The position numbers and the translations under genes are program-made. This document shows positions 1,264 through 49,282 of a DNA stretch of 64,000 bases, one piece after another. Every line of letters starts with the position of its first letter. Position 1 is the stretch's first letter. The DNA is taken from the NCBI RefSeq assembly GCF_014845095.1, contig NZ_NKUG01000043.1, positions 1-64,000 on the forward strand, read 5' to 3'. The stretch comes from Methylobacterium bullatum. Lineage in GTDB: Bacteria > Pseudomonadota > Alphaproteobacteria > Rhizobiales > Beijerinckiaceae. The notes below the pieces were generated by a model, which saw only the letters and a list, made by a program, of their open reading frames with translations, searched no databases and had not been told where the DNA came from.

Positions 1264-3021
1264 GTGGATTCCCAAGACCAAGCCGACGCTCCGCAACGCG
1301 GCCTCCTCTCCCTGCCGCGCACGATCTGGCGCGGCATCGGCCAGCGCGCCTCCTCGAGCCTGACGCGCCGGATCGTCGTCCTCAACCTCGTCGGGTTGAT
1401 CGCCCTCCTGTTCGGCTTCCTCTACCTGAACCAGTTCCGGCAGGGACTGATCCAGGCGCGGGTGCAGAGCCTGCTGATCCAGGGCGAGATCATCGCCGGG
1501 GCGATCTCCTCCTCGGCCTCGGTGGATACCGACGCGATCCGCATCGATCCAGACAAGCTGCTCCAATTGCAGGCCGGAGAAGGCGGTGCGGGCGACGACA
1601 CCCCCTCTCCGCTCACCTTTTCCCTCAACCCCGAGCGGGTGGCGCCGCTCCTGCGCCGTCTCATCACGCCCACCGGCAACCGCGCGCGGGTCTACGACCA
1701 GGATGGCGGCCTGCTGTTCGACACCCGCACGCTCTCGGCCCGCGGCGAGATGGGCCGCAGCGACGGCATCGTCGTGCGGAGCAAGCACAACTTCCTCGAA
1801 CAGGCCTGGGAGTTCGTCCAGGCCAAGCTGTTCGGCACCGCCCGCACGTCGGTCCTGGAAGAGGTCGGCCCGGCGAGCGGCCACAGCCTGAAGGAAGTCC
1901 AGGTCGCCCTCGGCGGCGCTCGCGGCACCCTGGTCCGCCGCAACGAGGCCGGGGAGACAAACGTCTCCGTGGCGGTCCCGATCCTGCGGTCGGGGGCGGT
2001 CCGCGGCGCGCTGATGCTCTCGACCCAAGGCGGCGACATCGACCGGGTCATCGCCTCGGAGCGGTTCGGCCTGCTCCAGGTCTTCCTCATCGCCGCCTCC
2101 GTGATGCTGGTCCTGTCGATCCTGCTGGCCGGGGCCATCGCCGGCCCGGTCCGCCGCCTCGCGGACGCCGCCGAGAAGGTCCGCCTCGGCATCAAGTCGC
2201 GCGAGGAGATCCCCGATTTCACCGGCAGGACCGACGAGATCGGCCACCTGTCAGGTGCCCTGCGCGACATGACCCAGGCCCTCTATCGGCGCATCGACGC
2301 CATCGAGAGCTTCGCCGCCGATGTCAGCCACGAGCTGAAGAACCCCCTCACGTCCCTGCGCAGCGCCGTGGAGACGCTCCCCCTCGCCAAGTCCGACGAT
2401 TCCCGTTCGCGCCTGCTCGCCATCATCCAGCACGACGTGAAGCGCCTCGACCGCCTCATCAGCGACATCTCCGACGCCTCGCGCCTCGATGCGGAGCTCG
2501 CCCGCGCCGAGGCGCGCAAGGTGGACCTGCACAAGCTGATGACGACGGTGGTCTCCGTCGCCAACGAGCGACGGCGCCCGAAGGACGCGCTCATCCAGTT
2601 CGACGTGGACACGCCGCCCGGCGACGTGGAGGCGCCCTTCATGATCTTCGGGCATGACAGCCGGCTCGGACAGGTCGTCAACAACCTCCTCGACAACGCC
2701 CGCTCGTTCTCACCCCCCGATGCCAAGGTGCGGGTGGCCCTGCGCCGGGTCCGCGCCGAGGTGGAACTGATCGTCGAGGACGAGGGCCCCGGCATCCCCG
2801 AACACGCCCTGGAGAGGATCTTCGAGCGCTTCTACACCGACCGGCCGGAGCAGGGGTTCGGCCAGAATTCCGGCCTCGGCCTGTCGATCTCGCGCCAGAT
2901 CGTCCAGGCCCATCGCGGCACGATCAGGGCCGCGAACCGCCCCGGACCCGCTGACGAGAACGGCGAGGCGACGGTGCGCGGCGCGCGGTTCGTCGTGCGC
3001 CTCCCCGCGGCGTCCCGCTAG
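1264..3021 (+). CDS. chvG: ChvG-type membrane sensor histidine kinase
   Basis: This kinase partners ChvI. From a GTG at 1264 it has 585 residues; an upstream ATG at 1177 is also in frame but adds a Trp/Cys-rich leader that does not look conserved, so I prefer 1264. A first membrane segment lies at about residues 37-57, then a periplasmic sensor region, a second membrane segment at about 268-292, a HAMP linker, and the dimerisation box FAADVSHELKNPLTSL with H356. The ATPase boxes are intact: N box VVNNLLDNA, G1 EDEGPGIP and G2 GLGLSIS. It ends 12 bases before hprK, so sensor and PTS genes are probably co-transcribed. Confidence 0.92.
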   Translation: MDSQDQADAPQRGLLSLPRTIWRGIGQRASSSLTRRIVVLNLVGLIALLFGFLYLNQFRQGLIQARVQSLLIQGEIIAGAISSSASVDTDAIRIDPDKLLQLQAGEGGAGDDTPSPLTFSLNPERVAPLLRRLITPTGNRARVYDQDGGLLFDTRTLSARGEMGRSDGIVVRSKHNFLEQAWEFVQAKLFGTARTSVLEEVGPASGHSLKEVQVALGGARGTLVRRNEAGETNVSVAVPILRSGAVRGALMLSTQGGDIDRVIASERFGLLQVFLIAASVMLVLSILLAGAIAGPVRRLADAAEKVRLGIKSREEIPDFTGRTDEIGHLSGALRDMTQALYRRIDAIESFAADVSHELKNPLTSLRSAVETLPLAKSDDSRSRLLAIIQHDVKRLDRLISDISDASRLDAELARAEARKVDLHKLMTTVVSVANERRRPKDALIQFDVDTPPGDVEAPFMIFGHDSRLGQVVNNLLDNARSFSPPDAKVRVALRRVRAEVELIVEDEGPGIPEHALERIFERFYTDRPEQGFGQNSGLGLSISRQIVQAHRGTIRAANRPGPADENGEATVRGARFVVRLPAASR

Positions 3022-3033
3022 GCACGCCGGCCC

Positions 3034-3558
3034 GTGGAGCGGCCCCCTCCCGCATCGACCCTCACGGTCCACGCCACCTGCCTGGTGCTGGGTGAAGCCG
3101 GCATCCTCATCAGGGGCGAATCCGGCGCCGGCAAATCGTCCCTGGCCCTCGCTCTCCTCGACCGGGCGCGGCAGGAGGGCGGCTACGGCGCGCTGGTGGG
3201 CGACGACCGTATCGGGCTCACCCCCCATCACGGACGCGTGGTCGCTCGCGGCCACCCCGCCCTTCACGGGTTGATCGAGATCCGGGGCATGGGGCTCGTC
3301 CGGGCATCGCCGCTGGCCGATGCGGCCGTCATCCGCCTCGTTGTCGATCTCGTCGGGACGCTGCCGCGACTGCCCGACACGCCCATGGATTCGGTCGATG
3401 TCCTTGGCGTCGCGATTCGCCGGATCATGCTGGACCGCAACATCCGCGACCGCGCGTTGGCGCCGGGTCTCGTGCTCTGTGCTCTCATCCCCAGTGCGAG
3501 CGTTGCCCCACGGACGCACCTCCGCACCGTCTCATGCGAATTCGGCTCTCCCATATAG
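3034..3558 (+). CDS. hprK: HPr kinase/phosphorylase, short alphaproteobacterial form
   Basis: This enzyme phosphorylates and dephosphorylates the regulatory serine of HPr. The 174-residue product starts at GTG and carries only the catalytic C-terminal domain, as is usual in alphaproteobacteria; the Firmicute enzyme has about 310 residues. The Walker A motif GESGAGKS is at residues 28-35, and the HprK signature IEIRGMG is at 81-87. It sits 12 bases after chvG and precedes genes for EIIA and for HPr, its substrate, whose target serine is present. This supports a regulatory PTS controlled together with envelope stress. Confidence 0.9.
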   Translation: MERPPPASTLTVHATCLVLGEAGILIRGESGAGKSSLALALLDRARQEGGYGALVGDDRIGLTPHHGRVVARGHPALHGLIEIRGMGLVRASPLADAAVIRLVVDLVGTLPRLPDTPMDSVDVLGVAIRRIMLDRNIRDRALAPGLVLCALIPSASVAPRTHLRTVSCEFGSPI

Positions 3559-25788: not shown

Positions 25789-26210
25789 GAAACCCTCACG
25801 CGAGCCTTGCGAGCCTGTCGGTCCGGACTACCGGAAGCCGTGCCCCTTCGGCAGCCTCTTTGCGGCTGGAACTTAGCTTCGCATTCCTTGATCAAGCCTT
25901 CGGTTCATCACACGCGACTGGGTCATTTGGTATCAATCCTGCGCAAATTCTCATCAAAGATCAGGTACGACCCTCCCCGGTGCCGGGAGTTCATGGCGGT
26001 TCCGGTCCGTGCGGAGTTCGGAACGTACCCGCGCCGGCCTTTCCCCAGGGCCACCTCGCCATCCTCGATCGCCTCTCCGCGCTCGTGCGCCTCGGCCCCA
26101 GTTCCTTTGCCCTTTGCCCTTCGCCCCTCGGCAAGGGCGGCCTCCCACAGGCGTCATACACTCGACCCTTGATGAACAACCTGAGGTATACTAACTCGCT
26201 TCTCTCTCCT
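25789..26210. other. Divergent intergenic region upstream of the restriction-modification gene
   Basis: About 420 bases lie between the chemoreceptor start and the ribosome-binding site of the restriction-modification gene. Patches at 25870-25975 and 26160-26210 are less GC-rich and could be promoters. A run of TTTGCCC/TTCGCCC repeats with an AAGGGC arm at about 26105-26135 could fold weakly. No gene is recognised. Confidence 0.4.
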
Positions 26211-26301
26211 GAGGAGGCGTGGATGTCGATCGACGGTGATTCCCTGAGCGCGATCGTCGCGGAACTCTCGATCCGTCCGGGACATGAGAAGGTCAGGGCT
26301 T
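26211..26301 (+). pseudogene. Out-of-frame true 5' end of the restriction-modification gene, with strong ribosome-binding site
   Basis: GAGGAGG (26211-26217) sits five bases before ATG 26223, the best start signal in this area. Its frame begins MSIDGDSLSAIVAELS and runs through PGHEKVRA. It then leaves the frame of the large downstream protein and stops at 26373-26375 after 50 codons. Dropping one T at 26300/26301 joins PGHEKVRA directly to LLYRLLTEALG of the main frame, the order expected for N-termini of this enzyme family. So a one-base frameshift seems to separate the gene from its own start. Confidence 0.7.
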
Positions 26302-29298
26302 CTGCTCTACCGCCTGCTGACCGAGGCGCTGGGCGCCAAGAGCGAGCAGATTTTCTTCGAGAGAAAGATACCTGAGGTTAGAGGTCGTCTCGACGCCCTG
26401 CTCGGCAGGACGATCATCGAGATCAAGTCCGACCTGCGCCGGGAGGCCAGGGACGCCGAGGCTCAGCTCACCCGCTACCTGCCCGAACGCGAGGGCGCCA
26501 CCGGCCAGCGTTACGTGGGGCTCGCCACCGACGGCGCCACCTTCACCGCCTACGAGATGCGGGACGGCGTCCTGGTGCAGCTCACCGAGCACGAGGTGAG
26601 GCTGGCGGATGCCCGTGGCCTCACTGCCTGGCTCGAAGGCGTCATCGCGGTCCTCGACTGGCTGCCGGCGGACGCGGCCGGGATCACGAACGAACTCGGC
26701 CGCCAGAGCGCCGCCTTCGCGCGGACCCTCGGCCTCCTCGCCAAGGCCTGGGAGGCGCTGGCGGCGGACCCGGAGGCGGTGCTGAAGCGGCAGCTCTGGT
26801 CGCGTCATCTCGGCTTCGTCTACGGCAAGGCCATCGACGACGACACGCTCTGGCTCCAGCACACCTATCTGGTCATCCTCGCCAAGGCGATCGCCGCCGG
26901 AACCATGGGCGCCACCGGGCGCTCGCCCGAGGATCTGCTGTCGGGGCGCGCCTTCCACGAGGCGGGGGTCCACGGCGCGGTGGAAACGGATTTCTTCGGC
27001 TGGGTGATCCAGGCGCCGGGCGGGGAGGCGATCGTCGCCAGCCTGGCCGCGCATGCCGCCCGGTTCGACCTCGGCAGCGTCGATGTCGACTTTCTGAAAG
27101 TGCTCTACGAATCCCTCATCGATCCGGCGCAACGGCACGATCTCGGTGAATATTACACGCCCGATTGGCTTGCCCGGAAGGTGGTGCGGCGCGCCCTCGA
27201 CCGGCCGGCCGAGCAGACCTGCCTCGATCCCGCCTGCGGCTCGGGCAGCTTCCTGTTCCACGCCGTGCGCCTCAAGCGCGAGGCCCTGATCGCGGCGGGC
27301 GTGCCCCTCACCGAGATCGCGTCGCGCTGCTGCGCTTCCGTCACGGGGCTGGACGTCCATCCGGTGGCCGTGATCTTCGCCCGCGTCACCTACCTTTTGG
27401 CGCTCGGCGACGCCCTGCCGGGGCGAGGCGGCGACATCTCCCTGCCGGTCTATCTCGGCGATGCGCTGCAATGGAACGTGAAGCGCGACGCGTTCGAGAG
27501 CGACCTCGTGGTCGAGGTGCCGCGCGACCCCCGCGAGGGCCGCAAAGGCGCGCCGACCCTGCGCTTCCCCCTCGGCCTCTGCGCCGATCCGCCCCTGTTC
27601 GACCGCGTCGTCACCGCCATGCACGATGCCAGCGAGGCCGTCCGCACGGCGGACGCCTTCGCGCGCGGGCTCGCTGGGCTCGGCGTCGCGGCGGAGCAGC
27701 ACGCGACGCTCGTCACCACCTTCACGATCTACGACCGCCTGCGCCGGGCCGGGCGCGACCATGTCTGGGGCTTCTTCGCCCGCAACCTCAGCCGCCCGGT
27801 GGCGCTCTCGGACGGCGCCAGGGTCGACGTCGTCATCGGCAACCCGCCCTGGCTGTCCTACCGCTACATGGCGCCCGCCCTGCAGGCCCTGTTCCGGGAT
27901 ACCGCGCGCCGGCTCGGCATCTGGGTCGGCCCCGACGAGGCGCGGCTGGTGACGCAGACCGATCTGTCGGGCCTGTTCTTCGCACGCGCCGCAGAGCTCT
28001 ATGTCCGGCCGCCGGAGGGCGACCGGCCGGGCGGCCGGGTCGCCATGGTGCTGCCGCTCGCCGCCCTGAGCCGGGGCCAGTTCCGAGCCTTCCGCACCGG
28101 GGACTGGACCGAGGTCCGTGTCGCGTTCTCTGACGCCTGGGTTCTCGACAATCAGGCCGTCTCGCCCCTGTTCAGGGTGCCCACCTGCGTCCTGTTCGCC
28201 GATGTCACGGCGGGGGAGGCCCGGCCGACGCCGACGCGGGTCACGGCTTTCGCCGGGCGGCTCCCCTTCAAGGACGTGCCCGAGGAGGTGGCGGATCGCT
28301 GCCTGCGGCTGGATCGGGCCGATGCACCGGTGCCTGCGAACTTCGAGGCCGGGTCGCCCTATCGCCCGCTCTTCCATCAAGGGGCGACCCTCGTTCCGCG
28401 CATGCTGTGTCTGGTGGATCGCGTTCAGTCAGGCCGTCTTGGCGGCAACGCCGCAGCACCCCTCTTGAGAAGCAGGCGATCCCCGCAAGAGAAAGCTCCT
28501 TGGCGAGACCTGCCCGCCCAACAGGGGGCTGTCGAAAGCGGTTACGTCCGGCCGGTCTATCTCGGCGAATCCATCGCGTCGTTTCGCGTTCTGAACGCAT
28601 TCGAGGGCATCGTGCCTGTGGCGTCCGATGGGAGTGTTCTCGATCCGAAACAGGCGAGCGATCGTGGCGTGAGCCGTCTCGGAGCCTGGATGCGACAAGC
28701 CGAGGCAAGCTGGGCGCAACACAGCGCCGGACGCATCACACTCAAGCAACGATGGAATTTTCAACGCGGATTGTCCTCGCAGTTTCCGCTGCCGCCCATT
28801 CGCGTGGTCTTCGCCAAGGCCGGATTATGGCCCGCGGCCTGTATCGTCAGGGATCGCCGGGGAATCATCGACCACAAACTCTACTGGGCGGACGTCTCTT
28901 CCGAGGACGAAGCCCGTTTCCTTATCGCCATCCTCAACAGCGAGGCGGTTCGCATCCGCATCGCCCATTTGCAGAGCCGGGGCGAGCAGGGCGCGCGGGA
29001 TTTCGACAAGCTGATGTTCACGCTTCCGATCCCCCGCTTCGACCCGCGCGAGGCGGTCCATGCCGGGCTGGCGGCGGAAGGCGCGGTGGCGGAGGAGGTG
29101 GCGGCCGCCGTCGCGCTGCCCATGGAGGTCTCGTTCCAAAAGGCGAGGGCCCTGGTGCGGGACGCCTTGCGGGAGGAGGGCGTGTCGGCCCGCATCGATG
29201 CCCTGGTGGAGACGCTCCTCGGGCCCGATCCGCGCCTCGCCTTGCCGGACGACGAAGCCGTTCCTGCCCGCGACGAGGAAGAGACCGTCGACGCCTGA
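26284..29298 (+). CDS. Single-chain restriction-modification enzyme (type IIG/Eco57I-like), probably frameshifted at its 5' end
   Basis: The main frame codes for 1004 residues from ATG 26284, but the natural start is probably 26223 in another frame. A PD-(D/E)xK nuclease-like motif lies near the N-terminus: D37 and EIK at 46-48 in LDALLGRTIIEIKSDL. The N6-adenine methyltransferase core follows, with the SAM motif LDPACGSGSF at about 314-323 and catalytic NPPW at 520-523. The C-terminal third (about 680-900) should hold the target-recognition domain, and codon use there (about 28380-28850) is visibly less GC-biased than in the rest. No separate restriction or specificity gene is nearby, consistent with one polypeptide doing both reactions. 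The recognition sequence is unknown. Confidence 0.82.
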   Translation: MRRSGLLLYRLLTEALGAKSEQIFFERKIPEVRGRLDALLGRTIIEIKSDLRREARDAEAQLTRYLPEREGATGQRYVGLATDGATFTAYEMRDGVLVQLTEHEVRLADARGLTAWLEGVIAVLDWLPADAAGITNELGRQSAAFARTLGLLAKAWEALAADPEAVLKRQLWSRHLGFVYGKAIDDDTLWLQHTYLVILAKAIAAGTMGATGRSPEDLLSGRAFHEAGVHGAVETDFFGWVIQAPGGEAIVASLAAHAARFDLGSVDVDFLKVLYESLIDPAQRHDLGEYYTPDWLARKVVRRALDRPAEQTCLDPACGSGSFLFHAVRLKREALIAAGVPLTEIASRCCASVTGLDVHPVAVIFARVTYLLALGDALPGRGGDISLPVYLGDALQWNVKRDAFESDLVVEVPRDPREGRKGAPTLRFPLGLCADPPLFDRVVTAMHDASEAVRTADAFARGLAGLGVAAEQHATLVTTFTIYDRLRRAGRDHVWGFFARNLSRPVALSDGARVDVVIGNPPWLSYRYMAPALQALFRDTARRLGIWVGPDEARLVTQTDLSGLFFARAAELYVRPPEGDRPGGRVAMVLPLAALSRGQFRAFRTGDWTEVRVAFSDAWVLDNQAVSPLFRVPTCVLFADVTAGEARPTPTRVTAFAGRLPFKDVPEEVADRCLRLDRADAPVPANFEAGSPYRPLFHQGATLVPRMLCLVDRVQSGRLGGNAAAPLLRSRRSPQEKAPWRDLPAQQGAVESGYVRPVYLGESIASFRVLNAFEGIVPVASDGSVLDPKQASDRGVSRLGAWMRQAEASWAQHSAGRITLKQRWNFQRGLSSQFPLPPIRVVFAKAGLWPAACIVRDRRGIIDHKLYWADVSSEDEARFLIAILNSEAVRIRIAHLQSRGEQGARDFDKLMFTLPIPRFDPREAVHAGLAAEGAVAEEVAAAVALPMEVSFQKARALVRDALREEGVSARIDALVETLLGPDPRLALPDDEAVPARDEEETVDA

Positions 29299-48134: not shown

Positions 48135-49282
48135 CCTCTTCTCCCCAGACCGCCCCGTCCCAGATCCCCTCCCTTCAGGATTTCCGCCGCGTCGTCATCA
48201 AGGTCGGCTCGGCGCTGCTCGTCGACCGCGCGCGCGGTCGCCTGCGCCATGCCTGGCTGGCGGCGCTCGCCGAGGACATTGCCGATCTGCATGCGCGGGG
48301 CGTCGACGTTCTCGTCGTCTCGTCCGGGGCCATCGCCCTGGGGCGGACGGTGCTCGGCTACGCGCCAGGCACGCTCCGGCTGGAGGAGAGCCAGGCCGCC
48401 GCCGCCGTGGGGCAGATCGCGCTCGCGCGCTACTGGGCCGAGGCGCTCGGCCATCACGGCATCGCGGCGGGCCAGATCCTGGTGACGCCGCAGGACACCG
48501 AGGAGCGCCGCCGCTACCTCAATGCCCGCGCCACCGTGCTGAAGCTCCTCGAAGTCCGTGCCGTGCCGGTGGTCAACGAGAACGACACGGTGGCCACCAG
48601 CGAGATCCGCTACGGCGACAACGACCGTCTCGCCGCCCGCGTCGCCACCATGATCGGGGCCGACGTCCTGGTGCTGTTCTCCGATATCGACGGCCTCTAC
48701 ACGGCGCCCCCCGCCAGTGACCCGAACGCGCGTCATCTGCCCCTCATCGAGCGGATCACGCCCGAGATCGAGGCCATGGCGGGCGGGCCGGCCTCGGAAC
48801 TGTCGCGGGGCGGCATGCGCACCAAGGTCGAGGCGGGTAAGATCGCCGCGAGCGGCGGCACCCACATGATCATCGCCGACGGGCGCGAGAAGAACCCCCT
48901 GCGCACCATCCTGCAGGGGGGGCGCTGCACCTGGTTCCTGTCCGGCTCGAACCCCGTCGCCGCGCGCAAGGCCTGGATCGCCGGCTCGCTCGAGCCGCGC
49001 GGTATCCTCGTGGTCGATGCCGGAGCGGCCCGCGCACTGCAGGGTGGCGCGAGTTTGCTGCCGGTCGGCGTCACCGGATTGTCGGGAAATTTCGGGCGGG
49101 GGGATGCCGTGATCATCCGGGACGTGCAGGGCCGCACCCTGGGGCGCGGCCTCGTGGCTTATGACAGTGCACAGGCGGCACAGATCATCGGTCGCCCGAG
49201 TCGGGAGATTGCGGAATTGCTCACTCATCCCGGTCGCGCTGAAATGGTGCATCGCGATGACCTGGCGATGGTCGGAGAATAG
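48131..49282 (+). CDS. proB: Glutamate 5-kinase
   Basis: ProB phosphorylates glutamate in the first step of proline synthesis. ATG 48131 gives 383 residues. The amino-acid kinase domain has [36 protein letters not shown] and [13 protein letters not shown], and the C-terminal 80-100 residues form a PUA domain ([13 protein letters not shown] ... [10 protein letters not shown]). An upstream in-frame extension to 47927 contains no family sequence. proA follows after 107 bases. Confidence 0.96.

What the first reader, a model, noticed from the sequence alone, without database searches (positions are those of the whole stretch)
26211..26375. One-base frameshift separates the restriction-modification gene from its start
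GAGGAGG and ATG 26223 form an excellent start, but that frame ends after 50 codons. Removing one T at 26300/26301 fuses PGHEKVRA to LLYRLLTEALG, giving a continuous family-like N-terminus. The enzyme may be off, translated from the internal ATG 26284 (losing about 20 residues), produced by ribosomal slippage, or the base may be a sequencing error. Only TT is present at the site, so slippage on a long homopolymer is unlikely.
Basis: partly seen in the sequence, partly recalled or inferred. Interest (0 to 1): 0.68.

Follow-up and report, generated by a model that had tools for sequence, protein, structure and literature searches.

The report
Restriction enzyme gene with broken start
In this Methylobacterium genome one extra base cuts a DNA-cutting defence enzyme off from its start signal, while the 14 full-length copies compared from related strains are intact there, so the enzyme is most likely switched off here by an ordinary recent mutation, unless the base is a sequencing error.

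Summary
ATG 26223, behind a strong Shine-Dalgarno, opens a frame that stops after 50 codons; the type IIG restriction-modification frame (to 29298) lies one base out of register. All 14 near-full-length Methylobacterium homologues aligned, including a copy from a genome about 99% identical in DNA, start at the equivalent of ATG 26223, read through PGHEKVRAL in one frame, and have one base fewer than the window's TT at 26300/26301. The extra base is private to this genome among those compared. Most other-genus homologues checked keep the upstream helix in frame, so ATG 26284 is not the family start; it also lacks a Shine-Dalgarno. The rest of the gene is uninterrupted and conserved, so the lesion is recent or an error. 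In 177,865 bases aligned to that near-identical genome it is the only indel I could show to break a gene in this genome; one other, in an A-tract at C280 31829, stays undecided. A single error cannot be excluded without reads. Most likely: an ordinary recent loss-of-function allele. Three other copies in the family are damaged too (IS-like insertion, deletion remnant, two frameshifts). Separately, the specificity region is mosaic between strains, suggesting exchanged recognition specificity.

The parts
26211..26217 (+). Shine-Dalgarno GAGGAGG of the family start
   Evidence: sequence; duplex -11.1 kcal/mol, reached by 1.15% of 2,000 random positions
26223..26375 (+). frame opened by the family start ATG; 50 codons, ends at TGA 26373-26375; codons up to about 26300 match the N-terminus of intact homologues, the rest is out of frame
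26300..26301 (+). TT where 14 of 14 aligned homologues have one base fewer: the site of the frameshift
   Evidence: against the mbul2 record
26284..29298 (+). type IIG restriction-modification enzyme, main frame, 1004 aa from an internal ATG that is not the family start
26392..26427 (+). putative nuclease motif D-x8-E-I-K (P0001 residues 37-48), PD-(D/E)XK-like
   Evidence: read by eye from the alignments; no Pfam nuclease match; domain layout as in PMC3874165 section 36, first part
27226..27252 (+). methyltransferase motif I (DPACGSGSF)
   Evidence: inside the PF02384 match, E 6.5e-8; motif name recalled
27841..27852 (+). methyltransferase motif IV (NPPW)
   Evidence: sequence; invariant in the six rows of alignment A2; motif name recalled
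28381..28809 (+). first variable block of the presumed target-recognition region (P0001 residues 700-842)
   Evidence: block identities
28819..29028 (+). second variable block of the presumed target-recognition region (P0001 residues 846-915)
   Evidence: block identities

Best explanation
A chromosomal, stand-alone type IIG restriction-modification gene has acquired a one-base insertion at about codon 26. Ribosomes start at the strong site at ATG 26223, leave the family frame at 26300 and stop at 26373, giving a 50-residue peptide; little or no enzyme is made, so both cutting and methylation by this system are most likely off. The event is recent: the remainder of the gene has no second lesion and is strongly conserved against the intact sister copy. 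Shown: the frame structure, the private base, and the family start. Inferred: loss of activity, and that the base is real.
For: 14 of 14 aligned homologues have one base fewer and share the upstream start. Against the near-identical mbul2 record the window (62,670 aligned bases) shows five indels that are not multiples of three; by the ORFs around them four are intergenic and only this one is in a gene. In 177,865 aligned bases it is the only indel I could show to break a gene of this genome. Nonsynonymous/synonymous ratio against the sister copy is 0.073 over residues 7-680. Damage to this gene has precedent: deletion remnant in G074, IS-like insertion in G010, two one-base shifts in G182. 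Two other contigs of this genome match N6_Mtase, so loss of this system need not remove all such modification.
Against: The assembly is a 329-contig draft and no reads were available. The one other near-identical genome examined lacks the insertion, so nothing independent confirms it. An uninterrupted, conserved remainder is also what a single base error would leave. One further possible frame-affecting indel in this genome, in an A-tract at C280 31829, could not be decided.
Confidence: 0.67

Rival explanations
1. The extra T is a sequencing or assembly error and the enzyme is intact and active, as it appears to be in the sister strain.
For: Draft assembly of 329 contigs; the gene is otherwise uninterrupted and under purifying selection; the base is absent from all 14 aligned homologues.
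Against: Only TT, not a long homopolymer; no other indel shown to break a gene of this genome in 177,865 bases aligned to mbul2, one undecided, so the assembly is not generally indel-prone in genes.
Confidence: 0.26
2. A shortened enzyme is made from ATG 26284 and keeps methyltransferase and specificity regions but lacks the first part of the nuclease domain, so it methylates without cutting.
For: Long open frame from 26284. In H. pylori a shortened ORF (HP0669, of a Type ISP system) is an active methyltransferase (PMC3936762, passages).
Against: No Shine-Dalgarno at 26284. In the relatives that ATG is out of frame, inside CAT GAG (His-Glu), or absent where they read CAC GAG. Codons just downstream of a strong, translated start are poor initiation sites (general knowledge).
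Confidence: 0.05
3. Ribosomal or transcriptional slippage joins the two frames and makes some full-length enzyme.
For: The two frames overlap over 125 bases.
Against: No homopolymer longer than TT at the site and no stop-assisted +1 site recognised in the overlap (by eye); the 14 relatives need no shift, so nothing points to selection for slippage.
Confidence: 0.02

Closest known systems
Type IIG restriction-modification enzymes (single-chain, RM.Eco57I-, RM.BseRI- or MmeI-like)
   Same: Single chain of about 1,000 residues; N-terminal D-x8-ExK motif; N6-adenine methyltransferase motifs DPACGSG and NPPW; variable C-terminal region; best PADLOC match is a type IIG profile (PDLC03630, E 7.7e-68).
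   Different: The allele in this window is out of frame with its start. No methyltransferase is among the seven neighbouring genes scanned, whereas RM.BseRI and RM.Eco57I have partner methyltransferases (PMC3874165 section 36, first part).
Frameshifted type IIG genes of Helicobacter pylori (JHP1272, HP1353-HP1354)
   Same: A type IIG gene kept from full-length translation by a shift of frame (PMC3936762, passages).
   Different: Those shifts sit in homopolymeric repeats and can switch; here only TT is present, so a fast switch is not expected.

Membership tests
Type IIG restriction-modification enzyme (family of the gene) | single polypeptide of about 1,000 aa with N6-adenine methyltransferase motifs | tested here: met
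   PF02384 E 6.5e-8; PDLC03630 E 7.7e-68; 1004 aa frame; DPACGSGSF and NPPW present
Type IIG restriction-modification enzyme (family of the gene) | N-terminal PD-(D/E)XK nuclease domain | tested here: inconclusive
   D-x8-E-I-K read by eye; its D, E and K invariant in the six rows of A2, but no Pfam nuclease match and both structure models have low confidence (mean pLDDT 39.1 and 44.4)
Type IIG restriction-modification enzyme (family of the gene) | C-terminal target-recognition region, variable between relatives | tested here: met
   residues 700-842 and 846-915 vary in blocks against conserved flanks; that they are the recognition region is inferred from position
Type IIG restriction-modification enzyme (family of the gene) | cuts DNA at a fixed distance and methylates its site | not testable with these tools
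   needs enzyme assay and methylome
Intact, expressible type IIG gene (this allele) | one continuous frame from the family start | tested here: not met
   frame broken at 26300 as deposited
Phase-variable restriction-modification gene | simple sequence repeat at the frameshift site | tested here: not met
   only TT at the site; 14 of 14 relatives have one base fewer and none another length
Type IIL / lone-strand (MmeI-like) subgroup | MmeI-like methyltransferase domain and no partner methyltransferase | tested here: inconclusive
   MmeI_Mtase 15.1 bits, under its cut-off of 27; no methyltransferase among 7 neighbouring genes scanned; partners elsewhere in the genome not excluded

The most novel reading that the evidence does not exclude
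The frameshift is a route by which a fused restriction-modification enzyme becomes a lone methyltransferase: weak initiation at ATG 26284 yields a protein without the first helices of the nuclease domain but with methyltransferase and recognition regions, leaving DNA marking without restriction. An independent one-base shift in the same N-terminal stretch of G182 would fit, though that copy has a second shift near its C-terminus.
Probability: 0.05. Interest if true: 0.5.

Novelty: new member of a known kind. Interest (0 to 1): 0.2.

Why it matters
It settles the annotation: the gene's family start is ATG 26223 and the allele as deposited is broken, so restriction and methylation should not be predicted for this strain from the long frame alone. 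For genetics in this bacterium it suggests one restriction barrier may be absent. The mosaic recognition region is the more useful lead, because nearly identical strains may recognise different sites.

Tried and rejected
Family start at 26284: rejected, since 14 of 14 aligned relatives are open from, and match, the upstream ATG, and there is no Shine-Dalgarno at 26284. Switching on a repeat tract: rejected, only TT. Older pseudogene with accumulated lesions: rejected, no second break in the frame and ratio 0.073. Window-branch changes were 10 synonymous and 3 nonsynonymous against 8 and 1 on the mbul2 branch (residues 7-680): too few to show relaxed selection.

Generally indel-rich assembly: tested against two references. 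Against G008 (148,223 aligned bases; 91 ORFs, 92,535 bases, passing a third-position test) nine uncompensated indel rows were listed (one search was a cruder first pass): this one; 26143, upstream of the gene's start; 8441, 17578 and 60807 in the window, which show no indel against mbul2; L113 6338 near the end of a 134-aa ORF; L124 7679 at 3% of its ORF; and two in L108, where this genome's frame appears to be the continuous one. L113 and L124 were judged by position only. Against mbul2 (177,865 bases) 21 indels are not multiples of three: 5 in the window, 16 in the two other contigs. Of the 16, nine were inspected by open-frame extent, one of these also by sequence and found intergenic (C280 86811), and ORFs around 11 positions were listed; the rest were judged from ORFs and low local identity only. 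They lie outside ORFs that I took for genes, in locally divergent stretches, or close to the 5' end of the longest possible ORF. For three of the last kind relatives were searched: at C13 3080 and C280 1339 this genome's own frame is open; at C280 31829, an A-tract one base shorter than in mbul2, the ORF is 359 codons here and 386 in mbul2, relatives' matches begin anywhere from residue 2 to 52, and whether that gene is damaged stays undecided. This is inspection, not annotation. In the mbul2 comparison the third-position test passed only 21 ORFs (26,208 bases) and listed no indel; the restriction-modification ORF was not flagged there, so that null is uninformative. After this recheck I left the odds as they were.

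Structure prediction failed: mean pLDDT 39.1 (full length, 6 sequences) and 44.4 (first 180 residues, 5 sequences); no fold search was run. No relative was confirmed in viral contigs. The solved-structure search at 0.01 gave two methyltransferase-domain matches only. The first DNA alignment and frame table mixed strands because minus-strand loci were not turned; one search supersedes them.

Full report
What is there. The window lies in contig C269 of a 4.86-Mb, 329-contig draft genome. It is about 99% identical in DNA to Methylobacterium bullatum isolate mbul2 (62,670 bases in three HSPs at 98.6-99.1%), so I take it to be M. bullatum (inference). A GAGGAGG and ATG 26223 open a frame of 50 codons; the long frame 26284-29298 (1004 aa) is one base out of register. 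The long frame is a type IIG restriction-modification enzyme: PADLOC PDLC03630 E 7.7e-68, Pfam N6_Mtase E 6.5e-8.

The comparison that decides the observation. Of 111 genus genomes (own genome included) 35 have some match. I aligned the 13 near-full-length ones other than the window's own, plus the mbul2 copy found in the plasmid collection: 14 of 14 are open from the ATG equivalent to 26223, read PGHEKVRAL(L/I)(Y/H)R in one frame, and have one base fewer than the window at 26300/26301. Left out of that alignment: G108 (split over contigs; its N-terminal piece matches from residue 1 in one frame), G010 (42%, interrupted), G074 (fragment) and the 18 other genomes, whose matches were weak and short, most of them about 20-40% of the length of a methyltransferase domain.

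Is the upstream segment really part of the protein? In the wider family 22 of 298 genomes match at 1e-60. Of 12 other-genus copies whose start was fetched, 11 carry H-(D/E)-x-(V/L)-(K/R) in the same frame as the nuclease motif; the twelfth, G182, carries it in a different frame. Plasmid relatives of 37-40% identity from Rhodococcus, Kocuria, Streptomyces and Rhizobium have a comparable N-terminal stretch, but its register against the Methylobacterium sequence is uncertain by a residue; a fifth, from Methylocystis (29%), aligns less clearly. ATG 26284 is therefore not the family start; in relatives it is out of frame (part of CAT GAG) or absent (CAC GAG).

What would be translated. Anti-Shine-Dalgarno pairing is -11.1 kcal/mol at 26223 and -4.0 at 26284, the latter no better than half of 2,000 random positions. 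Initiation at 26223 would yield a 50-residue peptide. A product from 26284 would lack 25 native residues, including the conserved stretch before the presumed D-x8-E-I-K nuclease site, while methyltransferase and recognition regions would remain. I consider substantial expression from 26284 unlikely.

Real or error. No reads are available. Against mbul2 the window shows five indels that are not multiples of three; by the surrounding ORFs 24330, 26104, 36382 and 63289 are intergenic and 26300 is in the gene. Adding two more contigs gives 177,865 aligned bases and 21 such indels. I could show none of the other 20 to break a gene of this genome; one, in an A-tract at C280 31829, is undecided, and several were judged by ORFs and local identity alone. 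Against G008 (148,223 bases) nothing else clearly breaks a gene of this genome, within the limits told under Tried and rejected. An error-prone assembly would put most indels into genes, so a general error problem is unlikely; a single error is not excluded. The gene is otherwise uninterrupted; over residues 7-680 there are 20 synonymous and 4 nonsynonymous differences to mbul2 (ratio 0.073), so the lesion is recent if real.

Precedent. In G074 the flanking genes remain but only about 150 bp of this gene is left. In G010 the gene is interrupted after residue 537 by about 840 bp encoding what looks like an IS5-type transposase (by eye and recall, not searched). In G182 there are two one-base shifts, near residue 36 and near residue 897. 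G274 matches only residues 147-416 and 536-998, and G347 ends near residue 740; I did not resolve these. Damage to such copies is thus seen repeatedly in this family and needs no special explanation; like the window's, those in draft genomes could include errors. Frameshifted type IIG genes are known in H. pylori, there in homopolymeric repeats (PMC3936762, passages).

Surroundings. Neighbours are a hybrid histidine kinase, LepA, a GGDEF protein, an MCP-like protein, two small proteins without Pfam match and a methylmalonyl-CoA mutase family protein; no methyltransferase is among these seven. The genome has N6_Mtase matches on two other contigs (C18, C301) and four matches to N6_N4_Mtase on three contigs (C270, C223, C300).

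A side result worth more than the frameshift. The C-terminal recognition region is mosaic. Over residues 7-680 window and mbul2 differ by four nonsynonymous changes (100% after rounding) and window and Leaf91 are 98% identical. In block 700-842 the window is 90% identical to mbul2 and 43% to Leaf91; in block 846-915 it is 64% identical to mbul2 and 96% to Leaf91. This fits exchange of recognition segments by recombination, as papers on H. pylori enzymes report (PMC3077401 and PMC3983042; search listing with the start of the abstract only). I ran no formal recombination test.

Literature. Searches with 'Methylobacterium bullatum' and 'genome' (8 papers) and with 'Methylobacterium', 'restriction-modification', 'methylome' (3 papers) listed nothing on this gene by title or abstract start; I do not claim it is undescribed.

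Verdict.

Noticed in passing
window 28381-28809 and 28819-29028: The presumed target-recognition region of the type IIG enzyme is mosaic among nearly identical strains: two blocks vary independently (43% and 96% identity to Leaf91; 90% and 64% to mbul2), suggesting exchange of recognition specificity.
   Followed up: partly
L026 (G074:C49), about 49078-49230: Syntenic remnant of about 150 bp of the same gene between the same outer flanking genes; the neighbouring MCP-like gene is missing there too.
   Followed up: partly
L180 (G010:C1:1307000-1312600), 2551-3391: Homologue interrupted after residue 537 by about 840 bp encoding an IS5-like transposase, named by eye only.
   Followed up: partly
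L173 (G182:C7:29500-34200): Homologue in another genus with two one-base shifts, one in the same N-terminal stretch as in the window.
   Followed up: partly
L178 (G274:C85:2000-5600) and L187 (G347:C6:1-2700): Homologues matched only in part (residues 147-416 and 536-998; residues 6-740); possibly further damaged copies.
   Followed up: no
L110 11829 (C280 31829 of the window's genome): A-tract one base shorter than in mbul2 near the 5' end of an ORF of 359 codons here and 386 there; whether the gene is affected is open.
   Followed up: partly
window about 26100-26125: Short tandem unit (about CCCTTTG) differs by one seven-base copy from mbul2 in the intergenic stretch upstream of the gene.
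   Followed up: no
NZ_LR743510.1 (L040, L101-L105, L190-L192): The 2.83-Mb 'plasmid 1' record of M. bullatum mbul2 carries the synteny of this window and of other contigs, so it looks like a chromosome piece labelled as a plasmid; one annotated feature is held for the whole record.
   Followed up: no
L108 4869-4929 versus L048: C-terminal extension of an RNase H-like gene (named by eye) appears continuous in this genome but shifted in G008.
   Followed up: no
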